From Amanita rubescens (taxonomy: Eukaryota; Basidiomycota; Agaricomycetes; Agaricales; Amanitaceae): a stretch of 64,000 nucleotides of DNA. The stretch is taken from assembly GCA_015039365.1 (NCBI GenBank), contig WION01000070.1:1-64000 (forward strand). The letters run 5' to 3'. Shown here piece by piece: positions 45,879 to 59,600 of this stretch. Positions within the stretch are counted from its first letter, which is position 1. Each line of letters starts with the position of its first letter. The translations under genes and the position numbers were made by a program. Under the pieces are notes generated by a model. It worked only from the letters and a program-made list of their open reading frames with translations, had not been told where the DNA came from and did no database searches.

Positions 45879-46984
45879 CTATTGTACTGCTGCAGCACGT
45901 CCGCCGGGTCGTTTCCTCTGCTTATTGCCACTTTGCTGAATCGTTTCACTGACGTAGAGTTCGCCGTTCCTTTCGTCCATTTCCAACATCAGTGGTGCTG
46001 CACTCCTAGACTGTATGAAAACCATGAGCATGAGATCAACGTCAATGTCAGACTCAAGATATCACTGACTTCCCGCTTCCATTTGCCGTTTAACCACTTT
46101 CCATTAGCCGCCACAGTCAATTTAGCTACGGGAAACACCTTATATGTCCTTGTTTTGTCGCCAGCAATGTAAGTTGCAATCAAATTGTTCTTAAATATAA
46201 TGTATCTTCGCTTGACAACGTTGAAGCGTGAGTGTACTTTTTAAAGAATAAAGAAACCGGGGACTGACGGTACGATCGCGATGATGGAATGATAAATAGG
46301 TTGTACCGGATGGTATCAGAGCCGATGCTATGCTGAGACGAACACCTGTTTCAAATGGATGCTCTTTTTTGACAACCGGCAAAGTAAATTGTCCTCTTTC
46401 TAGCGTTAAAGCTGGCGTTTCGTCCTTGACCACAAAAAATGCCTGTGTCTTCTTGTTTTTCCAAAGAATACATATCTCCGTCGGAGGTTCGTGCCCGGGG
46501 ATGCTAGACTAAAATGATTTCGCGTGAGATACGTCAAGAGCCTAAAGAGCTTAAATTTGGAATGCCACTCACATGGGTGTCTTTCGCTGCTCGTTTCCAC
46601 TTGCCAATTAACCATGGTGAATTACCCTTGGTCAGCTCAGATACACTAACACTCTTCGCCTCGTCAGTAGTAGTTTCGATCGAGATTTTGTTAAGAGAAT
46701 GCTGGTCGCCGTAGAATGAGAGAAGTTTGATCTGTTGAAACGGTATGAGCCTCTTGGTCTACTTAAAAAAACCCGGAACTGACAGGTTGACGATCGGCTG
46801 GTTCGTAAGAGGAATCAGATAGTCGGATGTCAGTGGCAAGAGGAATGTTTAGATGTGGAAAAGGCGGCTTCATGTTCTCGTCGTACTCGGAGTCAGAAGC
46901 TGGCTCGTGAGTGTCACGAGGAGAACTTGTCGCCGCCACAGAAGTGCAAAGCAGGAACGAAAAGAGAGAAAATGAGAACAACAT
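45879..46984 (-). CDS. Secreted protein with two copies of an unrecognised domain
   Basis: The first exon encodes a signal peptide (MLFSFSLFSFLLCTSVAA) and an acidic spacer. After a 52-base intron comes domain copy 1: IKLLSFYGDQHSLNKI, VSVSELTKGNSPWLIGKWKR and, after another intron, PPTEICILWKNKKTQAFFV. Copy 2 follows: TTYLSFHHRDRT, YKVFPVAKLTVAANGKWLNG, KWKR, then RSAAPLMLEMDERNGELYV. The stop is set at 45879. The exon joins of copy 2 are less certain. Related sequence occurs in the genes at 55.6, 57.1 and 51.9 kb. Function is unknown; an extracellular or effector-like role is a guess based on the signal peptide. Confidence 0.6.
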
Positions 46985-47033
46985 GATGATGTTAACCGAC
47001 TCGGAGGAGTGAAGGATACGGATGGGTGGTTAC

Positions 47034-47075
47034 GAAGACCAACTCGGCCCAGCATTAACTGATGCGGATTTTTAT
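47034..47075 (-). promoter_or_regulatory. Family core promoter, copy 1 (diverged)
   Basis: On the coding strand GATAAAAATCCGCATC is followed by CCGAGTTGGTCTTC, weaker versions of the blocks found before the genes at 52.1, 56.2, 57.8 and 59.5 kb. It lies about 50 bases upstream of the ATG at 46984. Confidence 0.5.
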
Positions 47076-47138
47076 CAGTGTGATCCGAGGCACAGGCGTG
47101 AACCCTCTTTGAGATTAAAGTAACCAACGTGAGCACAG

Positions 47139-50100
47139 CTACCCTTCCTCATCCGCATCATCCTCGCTATCCCAACTATTTAACCCCAGATCCCTCACAC
47201 TCGACACAGCAACTAACAAGGGATGATTTGAATCAAACATCGCCAAGAGCTTGGCCATATCGTCCAATGCAAACTCCTCAAACTCCTCAACCAACGCCAT
47301 ATCTTCCTTGTCTGTCTCCGGGTCAGACGCAACCTGATTGGCACGGCTCTTCCGCCTATCAGCGAACCCCTGCAGTTGCCGTTGCGTCGCTTCAATGATA
47401 CCAGTGTGGTACTCTTGCGCGAGCGCGCCAACTCCACCGATCACGCGTATACAGTCTGCAAATGCCTTATAGAGTGACGCTAGGAATGATGCATCTTGCT
47501 CAGTATTGATGCAATTGACAAGCTGGTTCAGCGTCGCGGATACCATCTGAGTCGTCAGCGTCCCGCTACTTTTCCCAGCCACTAGCAATAGCGGAATCAG
47601 CCTAAATAGGCATTAATTCCTGATGACTACAGTTGACGACAAGATGACAACTTACATAGCACACGCCTCTCGAACGCCTTCATGGAAGTAAAACTTCAGA
47701 CCAGGCAGCGTCACTTCCAAAGTCTGCGCCAAATACGGCGCAAACTGGGCACCCAACGTCGAGCAATAGATAATGAGCGTCTCAAACGCCTGGCATTTCT
47801 CTTCGATCACGGACGTTCGAATACCGAGCGACTGCCCATCGACGTTGATCGTCTCCCAACCTTTTCGTTCTTCATTTTCGTCGCCGTCTACATCAGTCAT
47901 CAGTCATCCGGTCCACACAATGCGACACGCCGACATACCAAAAACCGAGATGTCAGCCTTGACACCTGCCGTGTCGAGCAACGTCGGCATGACAATGGGA
48001 AGGTAAGGTTCAAAATTGGGTCCCATAGCTTGACAGACCTTTGCCCACGTTCCAATAAGATAATGCTGCAGCTGCGTGTCGGAAGGATCGATAGGGCTCT
48101 CTAGATACTGACATCAGCATGGCATGACGACAAAGATACGTCAAACCTACTTTGTATCCGCATCAGCAGCTCAATGAGCACTGTAGAATCCGGTAAAAAC
48201 ACATCTCGTCCAACAGCAATGGCTTAAAGTGTCGTGTCAGGTAAATCTATTCTCCCGAGTCAATATAAAATGTACCAATGAGACCAGCACACTCCATGGC
48301 CTTGACCCGTAGTTTGTGATACTCTGGCCCGTCCGCATTTCGCAGAATATCCAAAAGAAGAGGCATTATAGTCGAATAATGCTAAACGAATCGCGCTCAG
48401 TGAGATGTATTACGAAACACACCCATACGTACTTTGGCAAAGGTAACCTCACTCGCATCAGCAACCATGGCAAGTGTAGTGATAACCTGTTCCTGGACAT
48501 AACGGTGCACGTGTCGTCCTTGCCCCGGATTGAGCAGTTTAAGCAGACGCTCGACAATGGGGTCCAGGTATGGAACGAGCGTATCCCGTTCGACGCCCTC
48601 GCAAAAGTTGATAAGGGCTGCCGCTGCGTGAGAATGAACTCTTTATCAAGAATTGGCAAATATCGGGAATCGTTAGACGATTCTCACCTTGACTCAGGGT
48701 CCTCCAGCGCGGGGATGAGAACAGAAAAGAGCTGTTGACTATGTCTCTCTTGGATGATTTCCTGGTGCGCCACGTCACAGATCTGGTTTCGTACCGAACA
48801 AGCAGACATACCTCGAGATCTGTACATAACTGCCCTCTATTACGATCGTTCAGCTTCGAGCACCACCAATAACATTGTACGCTTACATGCACTGACAAGC
48901 TGCATACCGCACCCGCGGATGTGTATCACGGAACATGGGAACAACCATTCTGTTCAAAAACATGTTAATCCGAATAAGCAGACTGCATAAAGACTTACTC
49001 AACAATCTTTCCCAATTCATGTTGCATAACCTGTGACCATCGTCAAGACACGACAAAGCAAAAGCTCTGACGTCTCACCCTTCCCGTACCTTCTCCGATG
49101 GCAGCTATTGCCATCAGCCCAGCATGCCGCGCTCTCCAGTCAAAACTCGCCAACATGGACGGAATATACTGTTGGGGCACAGGCTGAGATGTGGACGGAA
49201 GCATAACATAAAGAGGTTCTCACCTGAAACGCAGGTGGCAACACGGCCCTCCCGCCCAGCGCACACGCCAGCCTATCCAAAGACTGCTCGTAAAGCGCAG
49301 GAGGGGACTCTGCCTCAGTCGAACTAGATCCTGCGGACGGCTACATGCCACCCATTCGTCAGCCAATGCGGTAAAAGAAAGCCTGAAACAGCAAACTTAC
49401 GTCTTCCCTCAACCACACATCCAAAGCGTCATCGTCCAATTCACCCATCCCCTCCAAACACGCTCGCACAATCACATCTGTCCATCCATGGACTTTTTTC
49501 ACCATACTTGCTTTTGCTTCCGACAAGCTGACCATAAACTCCAGAGCGCTTAACCGTAACGTCGATTTTTCATCATCTCCCTCATCTCCGCGTCCTGCGT
49601 CTGCATCCGCCTCTGCCTCTGCGCTCCTAGATGCGGAGGAGGGGGGAAATACAAACACAGACTTGCCATTTTCGGTTGCACCCGCAGACGAGTGAGAAGG
49701 GAAGGGTCTGCCAACAGTTGGTGTTGGACCCGCATCGACAGTGGGTAGTATCAATGGCGGAAGGAAGGTTAAGAGTGCCGGTAAATGTGGTTGGAATAGG
49801 TATGGATGAGAAGAGCATAGCGGAGTCAAGGTGGCTAAGAATTCCGACAAGTTGGAGTAATAAGATGAATCGTCGTCCGACGAAAGTGGAGGGGAAGGAG
49901 TCGTTGCAGGTATTGAAAGACTGGTATGCTGAGCGAGAGCGGGAAGGGTTTCAAGCATCGGGTACAAGAGCTGAGACAATTGGTGCGGAGCATCTGCAGC
50001 AGTGATATACGCAACAGACGCGAGCAAAGCGGCATGTCTAACCTAAAAACGTACAAATACGTAAATGAACGTGACCTCCAATTGAATGAGACGCACCTCG

Positions 50101-50867
50101 ATGCTAAACGCGTCTTGCAATCCCCTCTGAAACACGGCGAGGACGGCGTCAGTTTGAAGATCAACGACGAGATTCGGACAGCCAGCAAACACCCTGAACG
50201 CGCTCTCGCGTACATATCGGCTGGGGGGGACGCCAGGATCCGGTGCCGGGGCGTGCCCTTCTCCGACGCCGGCAGCGTTGGCGATGGAAAAGATGACGAC
50301 TTGAAGGGCATGCCATGGCCTTCCTCTCTTCATACTCTCGTTCGCGACATCGCACACGGTGTCGACGGTCTTGTGTCTGACGCCCTTGGCAGGCTCGTGT
50401 TCGAGAGAATGGAGCAGGATGCGTTCAAGTTTTGAGAGAGTAGCGTTAGAGAGGTGGTCGTAGAGGGTAAGACGGGGAGCGACAATGGCATTGTGGGAGG
50501 GATGGGGAGAGGAAGAGTTTGGGTTGTAAGCTTGCACGGAGGGACGAAAGAGTAGACGCCTGAGGAGGACGAGCGAAAAAGAGCGCATCTAGATGCGATC
50601 AGAGGGCGACTAGCGGAGATCGGGGAAGTAACTTACGACCTCCGTGTCTGCCGCTATCGCAAACTGAGCAAGAGCAAGCAGATAAAGCTCTGGAGAATGT
50701 GCGAGGCGGTCATTGACGGCGTTTTCGGCGCTAGGCTAAAAGTGAGTGAGACACGGGAAGCGAGTAGTCAAACATTACTTCTGGCGAATGTCATTGTCAC
50801 CGAGAACGAGATTTGAGAGGATTTGGGTGAGCTCTACAGTGATTTCTGGAGGAACTAGAGCCTCCAT
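47139..50867 (-). CDS. PSE1: Importin beta-3 / Kap121 (IPO5)-type karyopherin, short C-terminus
   Basis: The start MEALVPPEITVELTQILSNL is at 50867. Many introns (more than ten) interrupt it. HEAT-repeat segments follow in order: LALAQFAIAADTEV, SFSLVLLRRLLFRP (50588), SKLERILLHSLEHEPAK, VRESAFRVFAGCPNLV, RHAALLASVAYI (about 50027), STLRLSALEFMVSLSEA, WRARHAGLMAIAAIGEGTG (about 49110), DGDENEERKGWETINVDGQS (47880), EEKCQAFETLIIYCSTLGAQ, GLKFYFHEGVREACAML, and a last exon ending HPLLVAVSSVRDLG and an acidic tail. It should import ribosomal proteins and other cargo through the nuclear pore with Ran. The ORF stops at 47139, where IPO5/Kap121 relatives normally have roughly 250-300 more residues of HEAT repeats, so the gene is shortened or uses a lineage-specific end. 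Confidence 0.85.
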
Positions 50868-50979
50868 ATGTGGAACGGTCGTTTGTTATTATCATCCTCC
50901 TCGATTTGTATCCGGCACTTGCCGATTGCCAAACAACAAAACGTATATATTAGTTTACGTTACAAGGGTATCATCACAA

Positions 50980-51640
50980 CTAAGCCATCAATCCACCAAA
51001 AACTGCACCAACGACACCAACGGCGAGGGCAAACAGATTAGCATGATCAAATGTAATTTTGGCACCTGCAGACTTGGAAGCAGTGCTCGTAGCTGCAGAC
51101 GTAGTTGAAGAGCTAACACTACCACCGGAGGAACGAGGCGCGCTTGAACCACTGGCGGTGGTAGTACCAGAAGGTGCTGAGGCAGCACCGGTGCCGGTGG
51201 CAGTGGTACTACCGCTGGTTGATGCAGCTGTGACGCGTCCGAATCAGCAACGCGAAATAGTCGACGTGTTTAGTCGCGTTACTCACTGCAAACGGCCTTT
51301 TCAAGTTGAGCAGCGGCAGCCGCGTCAGATGCCGTGCACTTGGACGCCAAGCACGTCGCAGCAGACTGTTGGAATGCGGTGTTGGTGCAAACGCAAGGAC
51401 TAGTGCTGCAAATGTAAGAGTCAGTACCCTAGACTAGTTGACAGAGAGTAAAAGGACGAACATGGACGTGCAAGCACCATTGGTGCTCTGGAGGGCAGCC
51501 TCCACGCAGGTCAGAACACATGGGGGGATCTGGCTAGTGCTGGTAGGAACGGCAGTACTAGAGGCACTGGAGGGAGTCTGGGCGTGGACGCCAGCAGCAA
51601 GGAGAGCAGCAAGAGCAAGAAGGTTGGCGTTGAACAACAT
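50980..51640 (-). CDS. CFEM-domain GPI-anchored protein, copy 1
   Basis: The start MLFNANLLALAALLAAGVHA (signal peptide) is at 51640. Three exons encode a CFEM domain with all eight cysteines: PPC, LTC, GAC, SPCVC, ATC, SKC and AVC. A Ser/Thr/Gly/Ala-rich stalk and a hydrophobic end (LFALAVGVVGAVFGGLMA) follow, as expected for a GPI anchor. The Asp often found just before the fourth Cys (haem ligand in studied CFEM proteins) is absent. A GAATATATAAAGG TATA box lies about 45 bases upstream of the ATG. CFEM proteins sit in membrane or wall and can bind haem or act at plant contact. Confidence 0.9.
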
Positions 51641-51912
51641 GATGGCTCGGAGCAAAATGGGTTTAAAGAACACGCGCCTTTATATATTCAACAACAACGT
51701 GGGAATGCGCACCAAACTACTTACATTCAATACGATTCATATATTCAACCAGCCATCTCCGCCGCGTGGGAATCGACAATAGTTTAAGACGGAGATTATC
51801 CATACATTCCGTGCCAAGTGAGATCAGCGAGATCGTAATTCCAGTTATAATGATAAAGTCCATCTTGTGACATGTGACATGTCGCTGCAAAATAATTTCG
51901 GAAATCAACAAA

Positions 51913-52134
51913 CTACTTTACGACCAGGGCCCAACCGGACAGCACGCCTGCGTCTTCGAGACGAGTCACCTGAGCGTGTTAAGTATGTGAGATCGCACGG
52001 CAAATTAGCAAAACCACTAATATAACCTGAGTCAACAGGCTCCTCAGAAAAATATGAGAGGGAGCGACCACCACAAAAGTGGTAAGCAAGAATACAAGCA
52101 AAGTCGAGCATGAGAAAGTGGCAATAGTTTTCAT
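51913..52134 (-). CDS. Short secreted protein, truncated member of the secreted family
   Basis: The start MKTIATFSCSTLLVFLLTTF at 52134 is a signal peptide similar to that of the gene at 56.2 kb. After one intron (about 51970-52025, bounded by GTTATA and CTCAG) the frame reads VTRLEDAGVLSGWALVVK and stops. This resembles only the middle of the family domain (SELTK....LEGMW). The rest of the domain is missing, so it is a remnant or a very short product. Confidence 0.45.
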
Positions 52135-52180
52135 ATCGTGGATATCTCTTGATAACGCTGAGGTTGGGGATGGCTTTACA

Positions 52181-52231
52181 GAGACCAGATCTGAGGCGCG
52201 TTAGTGAGCCCGGCATCATGCAGATTTATAT
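52181..52231 (-). promoter_or_regulatory. Family core promoter, copy 2
   Basis: On the coding strand CATATAAATCTGCATG is followed after about 25 bases by CCTCAGATCTGGTCTC (52181-52196), 47 bases upstream of the ATG at 52134. Both blocks match those at 56.25 and 57.92 kb. Confidence 0.7.
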
Positions 52232-53834
52232 GCTTTGTTGCCAAGCACACCGTCACGGTGAGACATACCTTGATGCAGAGCACGACGTTTCAACTCCGTT
52301 TCATCGCAACTTCAAACCGTCCAATTCATATGTAGAACGATTAAAAAAAGGGCAATTTCTCACCGCCACCAAGAAAGAAAATTTGAATCCGGCATCATTA
52401 GAAGACATTATCCCACGAGTCCGTCACCGCCATTCCCGACGGGCGGTTGCATGCGGGGAATGACTTCAAAGCCAAAAACTGTCTTCGCTCGACCAACGAA
52501 CCCAATCCGTTAGACTTACGGCCCTGGAGAAGATTTAGGGATGAAGTGCGCGTCTATACCCCTACGACACAGCGGGCTGCGTATGGGAAGTGGTGCATGC
52601 GTCCTCCGTATGCTAAACAGACCTCTTGCCAGTCTCCTCGGCGTTATTTGGGGTTTGAGTACGTGTTCCTTATCTATTTATATAATTAAACAAGTGCTCA
52701 CACACACACACAGTACTACAGCTGCCTCCCACGGCGCTGGTGACGACTACATATCTCCAACATGCTACCGATCCCGCTTTTTCCAATGGTGGAACACCGT
52801 CCCCACCCTACTTCCGAATTGACGAACGACCCACGTTGCCGTATGGCCTGCCTTCGCCTGGTGTCGATGCCGCTGCGACGAGCATGCCCGGGACACAGGC
52901 TGGGATGGGCGTTCGCCCAATGCCTTGATTTCCCTAATGCGGCGGGATGCATCCTCACCGGAATCCACGCAGAAATCAAGAAAAACACCTCCACGCTCGA
53001 CTGCGTCATCCTCTCCACTTCTCGTCCAACATCCGCAGCAGCATAAACTCGACCTCTCGTCAATTTCGCTCACAAACGCCAACTGGCATCCGCTCTATAC
53101 CGATGACCCATTTGAGTGACCCGCGCCCGTGTTGACCACTCGATGAACACGTGAAATGGAAACACAGTTCACCCATCACGAGCTCAACATCCAGCCTGTC
53201 TTGTAACGCTGCACGAACGAGAAAAAGTATTTTCCGTCGCGTTCAGGGATTCCGAGCGGAGACAGGGATCAATCTCCTCCACGGCTCACTGCGCTCTTCC
53301 CACAATCAATGTTACGACAAGAAAGAGCCGATGAGCTAACGTCCACTCTGGAGGCGCTGCTGAAGAGTCGCTCAGAACATCGTGAACCTTGGCTCACGCA
53401 CGTATTTCCCGACCTTCTTGCACCTTTGATTTCACTGACAAACTACTAGAATTGAACAAGAGGATACGGAAACGGTGGAAGGGCTGAGAAGGGTTGTGAG
53501 TAACTCGATATTCTCTTCAAGTGCCATATGGGTCCAACGCAATGAACTCGTAGACGAAGACTCCATTGCACCATCAAATTGGAACAAGACAAGGTGAGCG
53601 CGCTCAAATTACTCGAAGCAAGCTTGCGCCTCATTCGGACCCAAGTTGAACACTCCCCACCACTGACTCAGACCACCTATCCCTCACCAACCTTCTAACA
53701 TAGCACTGCGCCACCGACGTCCACACAGCCCATAAGGCCTACAGCACCATCCTCACAGTCGGATCAGACTCGTCACGACAACCGAACAATTGTTTGGTGC
53801 ACCGTTACATGTGGACGTTCAAGGGTATTATCAA
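52232..53834 (+). pseudogene. Broken plus-strand gene between the two CFEM genes
   Basis: From 52738 a frame reads MTTTYLQHATDPAFSNGGTP and PYGLPSPGVDAAATSMPG; near 52915 the coding-like phase shifts by one base and continues as SPNALISLMRRDASSPES, then KLDLSSISLTNANWHPLYTD to 53119. Further on, ELTSTLEALLKSRSEHREP (53330-53390) and ETVEGLRRVVSNSIFSS (53465-53520) look like later exons. No family is recognised. Probably a host gene disabled by at least one frameshift. Confidence 0.35.
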
Positions 53835-54541
53835 CTAAACCATCAATCCACCAAAAACTGCACCAACGACACCAACGGCGAGAACAAACAGGTTGTCGTG
53901 ATCAAATGTAATTTTGACACCTGCGGACTTGGTAGGAGTGCTCGAAGCTGAAGACGAGGTTGAAGAGCTCGTAGCTGAAGACGTGGTTGAGTAGCTAGTG
54001 CCGCCGCCGCCGCTGCCACCACCACCACCACCACCACCACCACCACCACTGGTGGAACTAGAGGGCGTGCTTGAATAGCTGTCGGTAGTGGTGCTTGTGG
54101 CAGTGGCACTACCGCTGGCAGATGTAGAGGCTGCGTCCGAATCAGCAACGCGAAATAGTCGACGTGTTTAGTCGCGTTACTCACTGCAAACGGCCTTTTC
54201 AAGTTGAGCAGCGGCAGCCGCGTCAGATGCCGTGCACTTGTACGCCAAGCACGTCGCAACAGACTTTTGGAACTCGGTGTTGGTGCAAACGCAAGGACTG
54301 GTGCTGCAAACGCAAGCGTCAGTACCCTGGACTAGTTGACAGAGAGTAAAAGGACGAACATGGACGTGCAAGCACCGTGGGTGCTCTGGAGAGCAGCCTC
54401 CACGCAGGTCAGAACACACGGGGGGATCTGGCTGGTGCTGGTGGGAATGACAGCAGTAGAGGTGCTGGAGGCGGTCTTCCAGGCGTGGACGCCGGTAGCG
54501 AAGAGTGCAGCAAGAGCAAGAAGGTTGGCATTGAACAACAT
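53835..54541 (-). CDS. CFEM-domain GPI-anchored protein, copy 2
   Basis: This is a tandem paralogue of the gene at 50980-51640 with the same three-exon layout, signal peptide (MLFNANLLALAALFATGVHA), eight CFEM cysteines, GPI-type end (LFVLAVGVVGAVFGGLMV) and TATA box (GAATATATAAAGG). The stalk differs: a (CCA)n tract at 54015-54055 encodes about 12 Gly followed by Ser and more Gly. Intron sequences and 5' flank are also conserved, so the duplication included the promoter and is recent. Confidence 0.9.
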
Positions 54542-55577
54542 GATGGCTTGAAGCAAAATGGGTTTAAAGAACACGGGCCTTTATATATTCAACTACAACG
54601 TGGGAATGCGCACCAAACTACTTACAGTTACAGCACATTCAACACGATTCTGAGGTAGGCAATCACACCGCCACCCATCCGTTTTTGACTCAACGCGCGA
54701 TCAAATCGGCGACCACGTCTTGAGAGCCTACACTACCAGCCAGCCTTCCCATGCAGGCACACATCGCTCACCGCCTGTGAATGGCAAAGTTCATCCAGGA
54801 ACACTCGTTGCAAATCGAAGTGATTAGCTATCGTTTCGCATTCCATGATCGTTCTTCATCTCTCCTGCCCTTCATCAGATTCCATCGCGTTCTCATCCGA
54901 ATCCAGGGGCGAGATGATGTTCATTGTCGTCCCTTGCCAAGACATCTCTTAAAATGATGTGGCTGTGCTCAATCCTTAAGTTTCCACCTTAACTTACCAT
55001 AATCTACGCTAGATCAATGCAAGCTACCTGGCACTTTACAATCTAGCTTTAAATCATGCGTTATCAGGGTTTGATGGCGGTAAGACGACCAATCGTTCGT
55101 GTCCCCATGCGAACTCTATATTTAAGGTCGGGCTGTGTAATCCGTGAGACGTGCCGTCAGGAGACCACTGGCCTTTCCTTCTGATATCAGAATCCACGAA
55201 CTCACCAACTGGCCATGGAATGACTCAGTCTCGCTCAATTTAGACATCTTGGCTTTCTCTATATATTCCGTGGATTCACAAGAAAGCTCTTTCCGCTAAA
55301 TGCAAGAAGAATGTCCAGGCATAGAAGCAACAGAAATGTATATTTATATGTGGGAAAAATAATGCTCAAAAGTAATAATATGTGACCGAGATGTATCTTA
55401 TAAGGGGCATATATGATGAATCTAGCGGTAACTCGTTGAAAGTGAAGGCTGTATGAATGTCGACTAGAAACCTTTTGCATAGACTCGCCGTCGTTTTGGC
55501 GGTAGATAAAACGATTCAACAGGGAGAAGTGGGATGTGAAGTCAGAAGTGTGGCATATCCACAGCGGAATTGACATT
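54542..55577. other. No gene seen
   Basis: Upstream flank of CFEM copy 2 and downstream flank of the next secreted-protein gene. A 105-codon minus ORF at 55259-55576 has no motif and runs through what is probably 3' sequence. Confidence 0.4.
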
Positions 55578-56169
55578 TCACCGCGCAGTGTTCATGCGTA
55601 TAAACCATCCGCCGACACGGTTATTGCGTGAAATCCTCATCGCGGTCGGGAGGCTAGGCTGTAAAGATTATTTCAGAGTGAATGAGCCAAGACTTTTGAT
55701 ATCACTGTGGCACTGACCCTATCTTCACGTGAATCTGATGTTAGAATCCACATGCCTTCCAACGCTTTCGTACGTTCCTCGCTTTTTGTGAGTTCAGAAA
55801 TCGACAGGACTGGCGCACTATCGTGAACATATAAAGCAGAAAGTTTTACCCCGCGAACAGTCATATCATCGCCCACGAAAGTGACAAGGGTCTTCTTGAG
55901 CTTCATATCGGGAACCAGGTTTAAACGTATTAAAAAAGTAGGGAATGGAAACCACTGACATAAGATTGACGTCCAACCTTTTCCCAAGTAGTACCAGATA
56001 GCTCACCCGCCTGTTCGAGAGGAATATTCTGAGGGGTATGTTAAATCGTAGTTTCAAAAATGATAGACACACTGACCCGACTAGAAGCAATAGAGGGGGC
56101 GGCCACGACGAAAGTGCTAAGCAAGAACAAAAGGAACGAGTACGAGAATAACTTGGTGATGGCCTTCAT
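55578..56169 (-). CDS. Small secreted protein, one copy of the unrecognised domain
   Basis: The start MKAITKLFSYSFLLFLLSTF at 56169 begins a clear signal peptide ending near VVAAPS. One or two short exons follow. The domain reads LKKTLVTFVGDDMTVRGVKL, VLSISELTKSEERTKALEG, MWILTSD, then after an intron (55620-55680) PSLPTAMRISRNNRVGGWFI and stop. This matches the order of blocks in the gene at 46 kb: (S/T)F.GD, SELTK, L.G.W, and a final I......GG.F. The exon structure between 56080 and 55930 is not settled. Cellular role unknown. Confidence 0.6.
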
Positions 56170-56241
56170 ATCGGAGATCGAGAGGACTAAAAGTAGGAAA
56201 CGGTACAGTGGGCAGCGGCTATTTCTCGATGTGGGGTAGAG

Positions 56242-56288
56242 GAGACCAGCTCTGAGGTTTATTAGGGCACCATGCAGGTTTTATATCG
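56242..56288 (-). promoter_or_regulatory. Family core promoter, copy 3
   Basis: On the coding strand CGATATAAAACCTGCATGG is followed by CCTCAGAGCTGGTCTC (56242-56257), 73 bases upstream of the ATG at 56169. This is the clearest example of the two-block promoter. Confidence 0.75.
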
Positions 56289-56583
56289 CGTTGTTAAGCC
56301 TGTCCTGAGACGAACATGATACCTTGATGCACGATGGGAGAACTGTTTCGTCGTTGCCAAGCAGGTCGTGACACTGCCACAAATCTAATTATAGTAACAC
56401 ATTTTGACCGCGAATTGTGGTTCAATTCTTTGCCGTACCATCTCCGAGAATATCGGCGGCCCTATAGAATATCTGTCGTCATTCGTTGAGGCTCAGCAGC
56501 CAAGGCAACCGGACTATTAGCACGGCAGAGCGGTGATTCGAGCAGTGGCTTGAACGACAAAGAAGGGGAAGAAGAGGTTGTTC

Positions 56584-57849
56584 GGCCTAGGTGAGAATGA
56601 TAAGGACATCTTCCTGAACAATAAAAGTACAATCTGGTGTTGATGGTGGGTGTTCCTTCCCCTCTGGATCCGGGGAGGGAAAGGCTAACGGCGCAAAGGA
56701 TAACTTAGTGACCGTAGTGCCCATGTCGGGCCGCGTTTCGGCCACTTCGTTGATTCGCAAGCTTTTTCCATGACGAGTAATTCGAAGCCGGATGAGATTT
56801 TGAATGCTCATATGGCGAGTATTTGCCTATATTTACCCTTCTGACACGCTCGCTAGGGTATGAACGATATCCCGTTTACGAAAGAAGGTCTACTCGACAT
56901 GCCAGAGATTCGCATCTCACTTACCCATTTCTCTCATTGTTTACCGATATAATAGAAACATCTTTCATTTTCCTGCTCCTCTCTGGTCCAACAGGGCGGG
57001 ATCGATTTCACGGCGTCGTTTTCTGGCTGGGTATCATGAGCCATGTGCCATCGACATCCAAGATGATATGCATATTATTTGGAATATTATTCTGTAAGAA
57101 AGTTCGTTACATGAGACACAATCAAAATTCGTTAAATCCTGAGATCCTCGGACTGACATCATTTTCATCCTTTGGTATCCGAAGCCACCGGTCTTCTGCA
57201 TATTCACGTGGAAATTCCGAAATCTTGTAGTGCTTAGCCTTCGAGTTGGGACCGACCGAAATTGCCACGCCATTAATGGTTTTCCCGTTGCCCTCAAAGA
57301 TGGCAAGCATATCCGTAGGCAATAACTTGTAATTCTGTTCAGGTAAGTGAGTGCAAGCGTGAGTTGAAAGTCGTCGTATTCACCGGTTTCTATCAAGACC
57401 GTGATACGCAATGCGTATATCAGCGGAGCTTAGAAGAAGAAAAAAAACAAGCTGACCAAAAGAGGTATCCTAGTACCCCATGCCTTTATCCACCTAGTAC
57501 CACATAGATCCCCTTCAGTTGCTAGATGTCTCTCTTGCGGGGCCTGTTACAAATGCGAAATCATATGAGCATAGTTTCAAATATAAGTCCCACTAACAAT
57601 GAGATGACTCTCCCTTTCCGGCTTTCTAGTAGCAGGGGGGGGAGTTTGATTTCCGAAAATAGTGCGGAACGCTGCAGAAGTGATCAGGAGAAACAACGGT
57701 AGCATGTACAAGAACAACAAACTGTGTTTTCCAGTAGGAGGGGGGGGAGTTTTCTTTCTGGAAAAAGGGCCATACGGAGCGGACGCTGCGGAAGTGATCA
57801 GGAGAAACAACGGTAACATGTACAAGAACAACAAGGTGGTGATCTTCAT
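56584..57849 (-). CDS. Secreted protein with duplicated signal-peptide segment and the family domain
   Basis: The start MKITTLLFLYMLPLFLLITS at 57849 is a signal peptide; 38 codons later nearly the same segment recurs (SLLFLYMLPLFLLITSAA), each followed by a Pro-rich stretch (TPPPP, TPPPA). The domain exon (57330-57125) reads LLPTDMLAIFEGNGKTINGV, KHYKISEFPREYAEDRWLR, and after a likely intron NIPNNMHIILDVDGTWLMI. A further frame to 56587 (RLRITRHGKSLRINEV...) may be the last exon or a separate piece. Exon joins between 57580 and 57330 are uncertain. The 114-bp in-frame duplication is described as a finding. Confidence 0.5.
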
Positions 57850-57908
57850 TGATAACACAGGGCGTTCGAGGGTAAAGGACAGGATATGGGAGCAGATGTG
57901 AAGCAGTG

Positions 57909-57952
57909 GAGACCGGCTCTGAGGTGCGGTAGGAATCACGCGGATTTTATGC
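57909..57952 (-). promoter_or_regulatory. Family core promoter, copy 4
   Basis: On the coding strand GCATAAAATCCGCGTG is followed by CCTCAGAGCCGGTCTC (57909-57924), 60 bases upstream of the ATG at 57849. Confidence 0.7.
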
Positions 57953-58850
57953 AATTTGAACTTGCGGCAGAGGATGTGTCGGAACGGCACTCTAGATCAT
58001 GATGTGGTGATGATGCTCTACGCAAGCACCATCCCACAGCATCAGCATCATAGTATGATGACGAACTAAGATTTGATTGATACTTACTACAACTTTTGAT
58101 AGCGGAACTCCACACTAGAATACCCAGAAGGGGCCAAGGGCATGGCCGAACCACACGTTTTGACCATCGACCTGACTGAATAAAGAAAGTGACATCGTGG
58201 TTTTACGGTGAGCGGGTGCAAGTGGTCACTGTGTACGACCGTCATGATGTCGCCATGGACAAAGACTTAAGATTACGCACGGTTCAAGTGCCAAGACCTC
58301 AGGCCTCAGGTGCATTGCCAAGCCGTCTCGTCATGCGTGCAGGCCGTGCGAAGTATCAACATCGTGTGGTGCGGCTGAAGCCCTGACATGTGACCTGGGT
58401 TATGGGTGTCAATGAACGTTTGAAGAGATTTGATAGACGAAAACAATCCCGTCAACCACTCCACACAACATGAGACTGAATGTGACCTGAGGCAGTTCGA
58501 CTCACATATCGCAGATATCACTAGATAGGTCCTTCGTACTCCATACTGGTCCTGGCAACATTTCTAGCGCTCCTACATCCGTGCCAGCATGCACATCCGA
58601 GGCACCAAAAACAACGTGATCCTACGCTAGGCGCGACAGCAGAATAATGGTTCAGCATTTTTTATTATCTCATCCTGTAAACTGCAGGTCGTCCAACCCT
58701 CCATTATGTTCAAAAGTATCAGAGAACAACAACAAGATTAGTATGACGACAACACAATTCTAAAAACGTCTACCAATAAACTAACAGGCACGACCGACTA
58801 CTTAGGAGACTGGCCAATTTCTAACAATTTGGAGATCTACCCGCCGCTTT
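57953..58850. other. No gene seen
   Basis: Flanking sequence between two secreted-protein genes. A plus ORF at 58189-58386 (65 codons) has no motif. Confidence 0.4.
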
Positions 58851-58852
58851 CG

Positions 58853-59530
58853 TCAATAGTGAATTGGGTTCCGGTAGTTCTGTAAAGTACGTGAGATGCA
58901 TACTATTGAAAAGTTGCTATACCCACCTCTGATTCAGCTGCGGGAGGTTGCGGGCGACCACTTACAACGGGCCGCTCCCCATCCTTTATATTTCTCTCAT
59001 GCATGTGAGACGCGTACAAATTTGAGGGATCGCAATATTTGCATCCCACACTGCTATAGTTCCGGGCTGAAAGGGATACATCTGTAAGATGCTTGCAAAC
59101 AGGGAAGAAAAAAATGACGAACCCAGCCTTCCAGTAAATACATCCGGCTCCAGTGATCGAGGTTGACCTTTGTCCTATGAGAAAGTTCGCCAAACAGAGG
59201 GTAACCCCGTCGAGTCAGATGAGATGATTGATCGTCGTGGTGAACGTGGACGGGAGTGTTTGGGCGAGCAGGGGGAAGGGGAGGAGAGTGAAGTGGTGGT
59301 ACGTGGACGGGAGTGCCCGGGCGAGCAGGGGGAAGGGGAGGAGAGTCAAGTGGTGGTGGTGGAGGTTCGTAAGGCGGGAGGCCACTGAGGGACGGACGTC
59401 GCGATCGTTCGCCTTCGGCGCCGTCGAGATGTTCCAAGGGAGAGTTTGCTTTAAAATTGTCTCGAAGGGGAGCTGCTGCCACAGAAACGCCAAGTGCGAA
59501 GAAAAGCAACAAGTAGGAAAATAACTGCAT
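58853..59530 (-). CDS. Secreted proline-rich protein
   Basis: The ATG at 59530 gives a signal peptide, MQLFSYLLLFFALGVSVAAA. A Pro-rich region follows with a tandem repeat: SPPLPPARPGTPVHVP and SPPLPPARPNTPVHVH. Then come LFGELSHRTKVNLDHWS and, after an intron of about 30 bases (59130-59100), HLTDVSLSARNYSSVGCKYC and a hydrophilic tail to AAESE. The last short exon and the stop at 58853 are tentative. Similarity to the family domain is weak, but the promoter carries the same conserved blocks. Role unknown. Confidence 0.55.
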
Positions 59531-59553
59531 GGGCAAAGAATGTCGACTGTGAG

Positions 59554-59600
59554 GAGACCAGCTCTGACATGGTTTCCTAAACTGCGCGAATTTCTACTCG
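59554..59600 (-). promoter_or_regulatory. Family core promoter, copy 5
   Basis: On the coding strand AGTAGAAATTCGCGCAG is followed by GTCAGAGCTGGTCTC (59554-59568), 24 bases upstream of the ATG at 59530. The TATA-like block is diverged; the second block is intact. Confidence 0.6.

What the first reader, a model, noticed from the sequence alone, without database searches (positions are those of the whole stretch)
47034..59600. Five secreted-protein genes share a two-block core promoter
On the coding strand a TATA-like block (consensus TATAAAATCCGCATG) is followed by CCTCAGAGCTGGTCTC, 24-73 bases before the ATG, at 59554, 57909, 56242, 52181 and, more diverged, 47034. Neighbouring CFEM, importin and G-alpha genes lack it. 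The 16-bp block is better conserved than the proteins, so it probably marks the transcription start or a regulator site and makes the genes co-regulated.
Basis: seen in the sequence. Interest (0 to 1): 0.8.

Follow-up and report, generated by a model that had tools for sequence, protein, structure and literature searches.

The report
Shared start-site block, secreted-protein genes
In the mushroom Amanita rubescens, dozens of fast-changing genes for secreted proteins carry the same short DNA block where their transcripts probably begin, which may let the fungus switch the whole set on together.

Summary
The window is from Amanita rubescens, an ectomycorrhizal mushroom. CCTCAGAGCYGGTCTC occurs 43 times exactly in 75.7 Mb (reversed control 0); CAGAGCYGGTCTC occurs 136 times (control 1). 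I examined 111 of these 136, which collapse to 55 promoters. 49 of 55 have a signal-peptide-like ORF starting within 350 nt downstream, against 3 of 55 on the opposite strand. In the main family the TATA box's first T lies 30-35 nt before the block's CA in 39 of 44, most often 31, the usual TATA-to-start distance. Starting from signal peptides, blind to promoters, 58 of 59 genes with DNA in hand carry the block. AGAGCYGGTCTC is nearly invariant although flanks and mature proteins have diverged. A second secreted family, at least one member of which has zinc fingers, has it in 13 of 13. In the window four sites are solid; the fifth (47034) is not significant. Best reading: a gene-class-specific initiator with a downstream extension. 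Start site and co-regulation are inferred, not shown. A role in the mRNA leader is the main rival.

The parts
59554..59569 (-). block TGTCAGAGCTGGTCTC; TATA-like TAGAAA at about 59591-59596
   Evidence: 2 mismatches, score 23.7, 23 nt before ATG 59530
59054..59530 (-). secreted-protein ORF MQLFSYLLLFFALGVSVAAAPL..., 158 aa
   Evidence: ORF list, model; N-terminus hydrophobic by a crude test
57909..57924 (-). block CCTCAGAGCCGGTCTC; TATA-like CATAAA at about 57946-57951
   Evidence: 59 nt before ATG 57849
57577..57849 (-). secreted-protein ORF MKITTLLFLYMLPLFLLITSAASAP... (gene end uncertain; introns possible)
   Evidence: the last two on the haplotype copy L032
56242..56257 (-). block CCTCAGAGCTGGTCTC (exact); TATAAA at about 56280-56285
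   Evidence: 72 nt before ATG 56169
55578..56169 (-). secreted-protein gene MKAITKLFSYSFLLFLLSTFVVAAP..., several exons (model uncertain)
   Evidence: sequence; model on the haplotype copy L032
52181..52196 (-). block CCTCAGATCTGGTCTC; TATAAA at about 52225-52230 (34 nt before the block)
   Evidence: 46 nt before ATG 52134
52027..52134 (-). first exon (by eye) of a secreted-protein gene MKTIATFSCSTLLVFLLTTFVVVAPS...
   Evidence: sequence
47034..47050 (-). degenerate block GGGCCGAGTTGGTCTTC, not significant alone; GATAAA at about 47071-47076
   Evidence: score -1.7
46992..47007 (-). second degenerate copy CCTCCGAGTCGGTTAA just before the ATG
   Evidence: score 1.7, P 0.07
46000..46984 (-). secreted-protein gene, public protein P0001 (290 aa); continues below 46000, where I did not trace it

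Best explanation
A class-specific core promoter of Amanita rubescens. A TATA box is followed about 31 nt later by an initiator (YYCA+1GA) fused to an invariant downstream stretch, so that the element spans about -4 to +12 (CCYCA+1GAGCYGGTCTC). It serves a large, fast-diverging set of secreted-protein genes. Shown here: the motif, its spacing to TATA, its orientation, its near-universal presence upstream of two signal-peptide families, and its conservation against diverged flanks. Inferred: that the A of CAG is the transcription start; that AGAGCYGGTCTC is read as DNA by the initiation machinery or a dedicated factor; and that this ties the genes into one expression programme.
For: 136 13-mer sites against 1 in the reversed control. 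Strict TATAWA in 36 of 55 promoters in the 20 nt expected, 4 of 55 in the 31 nt upstream of that; first T to the A of CAG 30-35 nt in 39 of 44 family-1 promoters with a TATA-like site, mode 31. Mouse TATA-to-start spacing is mostly 27-34, commonest 30-31 (passages of PMC1779604), and S. pombe TATA boxes centre at -28 to -30 while the human initiator is BBCA+1BW, which YYCAGA fits (passages of PMC8871863). Signal-peptide-like ORF downstream 49 of 55, opposite strand 3 of 55. Blind protein-side test 58 of 59. Second family 13 of 13. Flanks outside TATA and block are near random, while letters not used for selection (the three before and the one after the 13-mer) still carry 0.8-1.2 bits. Additional copies nearby are in sense: 8 forward, 1 reverse, 0.5 and 0.7 expected.
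Against: No 5'-end data. Family 2 has its TATA at 38-39 nt in 7 of 8, longer than the usual range. In 10 of 15 tandem-copy promoters a decayed copy lies 32-36 nt after TATA and the perfect copy 24-29 nt further on, so the perfect block need not be at the predicted start. The most invariant letters are downstream of the CA, not the CA itself. Six of 55 fail the signal-peptide test, one of them (L013) clearly; 3 of 55 have no TATA-like site; one of 59 signal-peptide genes (L110) has no block. Part of the sharing is common descent of paralogues.
Confidence: 0.58

Rival explanations
1. A 5'-terminal mRNA element: the block is conserved because every transcript begins with AGAGCYGGUCUC, bound by an RNA-binding or translation factor (as with 5'TOP leaders), giving coordinated translation or stability of the secretome.
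For: The invariant part lies wholly in the predicted transcript. Perfect copies persist downstream of the predicted start when the start-site copy decays. Nearby copies are in sense.
Against: No folding beyond shuffles in 5 leaders tested. It does not by itself explain the tight spacing to TATA, unless the element must be cap-proximal.
Confidence: 0.2
2. A binding site of an ordinary regulator whose place near the start is incidental; for example a dimeric factor reading the imperfect dyad GAG-CYGGT-CTC.
For: The dyad; tandem copies; other shared upstream sites such as CACGTG in 9 of 55 promoters show ordinary regulators at work.
Against: Fixed distance to TATA and single orientation are unusual for such sites.
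Confidence: 0.12
3. Only common descent: paralogues inherited the same 5' end and it has not yet diverged.
For: Family-1 signal peptides are alike and many sites join into one group when they are included (38 of 55).
Against: Flanks are near random and mature parts fall into 33 groups, yet the 12-mer is nearly invariant in a set not chosen by it. A second family not joined to the first by sequence has the same block.
Confidence: 0.07
4. A 3' splice acceptor (YYYCAG|AG) of a leader intron rather than a promoter element.
For: The CAG is preceded by C/T-rich sequence.
Against: A TATA box lies 30-35 nt before it; many promoters have their own GTAAGT-type leader intron after the block (seen by eye); an acceptor would not need GCYGGTCTC.
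Confidence: 0.03

Closest known systems
Oomycete INR+FPR core promoter (Phytophthora infestans), PMC3599244 (abstract and one section read)
   Same: A 16-nt block at the start site made of an initiator fused to a taxon-specific downstream part, tied there to stage-regulated, infection-related genes.
   Different: Different sequence; TATA-less; about 13% of all genes; the block there is described as heterogeneous. Here TATA is present, one gene class is involved and the downstream part is nearly invariant.
Effector-gland promoter motifs of plant-parasitic nematodes (STATAWAARS, PMC6062891, abstract; DOG box, listings)
   Same: A lineage-specific promoter motif that predicts secreted proteins of unknown family.
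   Different: Different phylum and sequence; expression in gland cells was verified there, while nothing about expression is known here.
TATA + initiator promoters (mouse PMC1779604, fission yeast PMC8871863; passages)
   Same: Spacing of TATA to CA, and the consensus BBCA+1BW.
   Different: Those initiators are short and degenerate and not restricted to one gene class; here ten further bases to +12 are nearly fixed.
TCT / 5'TOP initiator of ribosomal protein genes (recalled; listings only)
   Same: An initiator used by one functional gene class that also fixes the 5' end of the mRNA.
   Different: Sequence and gene class differ; no pyrimidine tract at +1.

Membership tests
TATA + initiator core promoter | TATA box with first T about 27-34 nt before +1 | tested here: met
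   39 of 44 family-1 promoters with a TATA-like site have 30-35 nt to the A of CAG; family 2 has 38-39 in 7 of 8, outside the range (range)
TATA + initiator core promoter | BBCA+1BW around the start | tested here: met
   YYCAGA in the consensus; in the blind set the C is T in 11 of 39 and the A differs in 4 of 39
TATA + initiator core promoter | transcripts start at the A | not testable with these tools
   no 5'-end or expression data held
Oomycete INR+FPR | INR (such as TCATTCT) followed after 2 nt by FPR, without TATA | tested here: not met
   sequence differs and TATA is present (definition)
Effector-associated promoter motif | motif predicts secreted proteins | tested here: met
   49 of 55 against 3 of 55 (a hydrophobicity test, not a trained signal-peptide predictor); 58 of 59 in the reverse direction
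Effector-associated promoter motif | genes expressed in the effector-producing tissue or stage | not testable with these tools
   no expression data held
TCT / 5'TOP | pyrimidine tract starting at +1 (recalled) | tested here: not met
   predicted +1 onwards reads AGAGCYGGTCTC

The most novel reading that the evidence does not exclude
Amanita rubescens uses a dedicated start-site code for its candidate effector repertoire. Two secreted families without detectable relation, one of proteins rich in GxW motifs and one of which at least one member carries nuclear-signal-like stretches and C2H2 zinc fingers, are read through the same start-spanning 12-mer by one lineage-specific factor acting on the DNA or on the identical 5' end of the mRNAs. 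New secreted genes would join the programme by keeping this block while the protein changes freely.
Probability: 0.3. Interest if true: 0.85.

Novelty: new variant of a known kind. Interest (0 to 1): 0.62.

Why it matters
Fungal candidate effectors are hard to find because their sequences diverge quickly. A nearly invariant promoter block that survives while the proteins change gives a sequence handle on an otherwise orphan secretome: three protein searches found relatives only in A. rubescens, plus one ORF of unnamed source. It makes directly testable whether an ectomycorrhizal fungus runs a large part of its secretome through a class-specific initiator or a common mRNA leader. No fungal counterpart appeared in the listings of four paper searches (listings only), and the 13-mer in either orientation was found in three papers of the library, unrelated by title and start of abstract.

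Tried and rejected
The TATA 15-mer as a motif of its own: not enriched in the window. The 61371 match: no TATA at the usual distance, weaker score. Hairpin in the leader: no unusual folding in 5 tested. Known RNA families in the window: none at the gathering threshold. Pfam: none for six early fragments; for P0001, P0002, P0004 and P0005 nothing above a cut-off; no PDB relative for a five-row family profile. AlphaFold2 of P0001 with a five-row alignment: mean pLDDT 38.8, of no use, so no fold search was run. Membership in oomycete INR+FPR or TCT: sequences do not fit. TATA + CAGAGC without the rest of the block: 173 against 94 for the control, too weak to extend the set. Negative control of other secreted families: none of 6 hydrophobin and 5 CFEM matches has an exact 13-mer from the lists within 1 kb upstream (compared by eye; one search rechecked only by contig against a short list). 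The 55 'distinct' promoters come from ungapped clustering at 80% over -50..+16, so a few near-duplicates that differ by indels (L051/L067, L056/L089) count twice.
Full report
What was checked. The window is part of contig 651 of a 75.7 Mb, 786-contig assembly. The protein of the gene at 47034 is identical, over the 200 residues I submitted, to Amanita rubescens protein F5887DRAFT_1249955 on a 199,600-base contig, the length of contig 651 (104-residue start of L104's contig entry), so the organism is A. rubescens, listed among mycorrhizal genomes in PMC7550596 (passages). Many loci appear two to four times, so the assembly seems to hold both haplotypes (inference).

Observation in the window. 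Four copies of the block are solid (56242, 57909, 52181, 59554). The fifth, at 47034, is not significant alone. It and a second degenerate copy at 46992 share CCGAGTYGGT. The CFEM promoter lacks the block, and the matrix found no further strong site in the window apart from 61371, which I take for chance.

Genome-wide occurrence. CCTCAGAGCYGGTCTC has 43 exact sites against 0 for the reversed pattern and 286 against 42 at up to two mismatches. The 13-mer CAGAGCYGGTCTC has 96 + 40 = 136 sites against 1. The 12-mer AGAGCYGGTCTC has 200 against 14.

Where the sites are. I read 111 of the 136 13-mer sites with their flanks; they collapse to 55 promoters. The distance from the first T of the TATA-like site to the A of CAG is 30-35 nt in 39 of 44 family-1 and other promoters with such a site, 31 nt being commonest (19), and 38-39 nt in 7 of 8 family-2 promoters; 3 of 55 have none. 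Strict TATAWA is found in 36 of 55 in the expected 20 nt and in 4 of 55 in the 31 nt upstream of that. Within 350 nt downstream 49 of 55 have an ORF whose start is hydrophobic like a signal peptide, against 3 of 55 on the opposite strand (a simple hydrophobicity test). The six that miss the cut-off are L013, L022 (narrowly), L030 at 1075, both sites of L040, and L071; L071 groups with family 2 by sequence. Many leaders contain a GTAAGT-type intron start after the block (by eye).

Blind test from the protein side. A 40-residue signal-peptide query found 77 places with no use of promoter sequence. DNA was in hand for 59 of the 77: 58 have the block (24 with no mismatch, 18 with one, 12 with two, 3 with three, 1 with four) and one, L110, has none. 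In the 39 unique sequences the letters AGAGCYGGTCTC carry 1.4-2.0 bits each, the Y apart, more than the letters before them. This set was not chosen by the block, although the scoring matrix was trained on block sites. A comparison by coordinates alone gave 53 of 77, because the list of sites with mismatches is cut at 100 places.

Two families. Family 1 has a signal peptide like MLFxYALLFFLLGTSVxAxP. With signal peptides cut off, the downstream ORFs of all 55 sites fall into 33 groups at E<1e-3 (many loci hold only about 0.9 kb, so relatedness is underestimated). By eye, mature parts often repeat a G-x-W motif. Two of my gene models equal the public proteins P0002 and P0004 exactly; the model for P0001 agrees only over its first 200 residues. 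Family 2 (MRLSLAI signal peptide) is not joined to family 1 at E<1e-3 even with signal peptides included. One member is 479 aa with KRKAS and RKRPR stretches, a proline-rich middle and two C2H2-like fingers at the C-terminus, one above the Pfam cut-off. All 13 family-2 places found by protein have the block, ten in the exact list and three as CCCAAGAGCTGGTCTC.

Tandem copies. A second sense copy of the core exists in 8 of 55 promoters, with 1 weak reverse copy, against 0.5 and 0.7 expected. Among 15 tandem-copy promoters looked at closely, 10 have a decayed or AG-less copy (such as CAGCTAGTCTC or CAGCTGGTTTC) 32-36 nt after the TATA-like site, followed 24-29 nt on by the perfect block; the other five differ in spacing, in lacking TATA, or in having two intact copies (sequences). 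In family 2 the perfect block comes first and a sequence like AAAGCNGGYCTTT follows just before the ATG. So the perfect sequence is kept in the transcribed leader even when it is not at the TATA-set start. This is the main reason why I keep an mRNA-level role at 0.2.

Other shared promoter parts. CACGTG occurs in 9 of 55 promoters at -48 to -62, against 1 in 17.6 kb of DNA further upstream, and AAGTTTCA is over-represented (5 promoters, 0.5 expected). The block is therefore one part of a common promoter, and the best kept one.

Outside evidence. Three protein searches found relatives only in A. rubescens, plus P0003 of unnamed source. P0003 is an ORF that reads through a promoter: 22 of 24 residues around the block's reading (VLNLRAGLHTH...) are identical to the translated promoter in L012, against 70% identity over 77 residues in the secreted part.

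Mechanism. TATA plus YYCA+1GA at the canonical distance is what an initiator looks like, and a fixed downstream extension is best paralleled by the oomycete INR+FPR block. I therefore propose a class-specific initiator with a downstream element. Start sites, the reader protein and co-expression remain unshown.

Noticed in passing
L123 302-1741 (-), genome place C13:467321: Predicted secreted protein of 479 aa with nuclear-signal-like stretches (by eye) and C-terminal C2H2 zinc fingers, one above the Pfam cut-off; an odd combination. L071 has another C2H2-like stretch.
   Followed up: partly
promoters of L020, L029, L053, L058, L059, L060, L074, L104 and the window gene at 59530: E-box CACGTG at -48 to -62 from the block in 9 of 55 promoters, against 1 in 17.6 kb background.
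   Followed up: partly
window 57577-57849 (-): The ORF seems to contain its signal-peptide stretch twice (LLFLYMLPLFLLITSAA repeated), as if the first exon had been duplicated.
   Followed up: no
L013 (C55:55848): An exact block with TATA precedes an ORF without a signal peptide (MDLSNCHLNRS...), a possible exception or a gene start that I misread.
   Followed up: no
L014, about 0.9-1.8 kb after the block: A retrotransposon-gag-like ORF with a CCHC-type stretch lies next to a family-2 gene (by eye).
   Followed up: no
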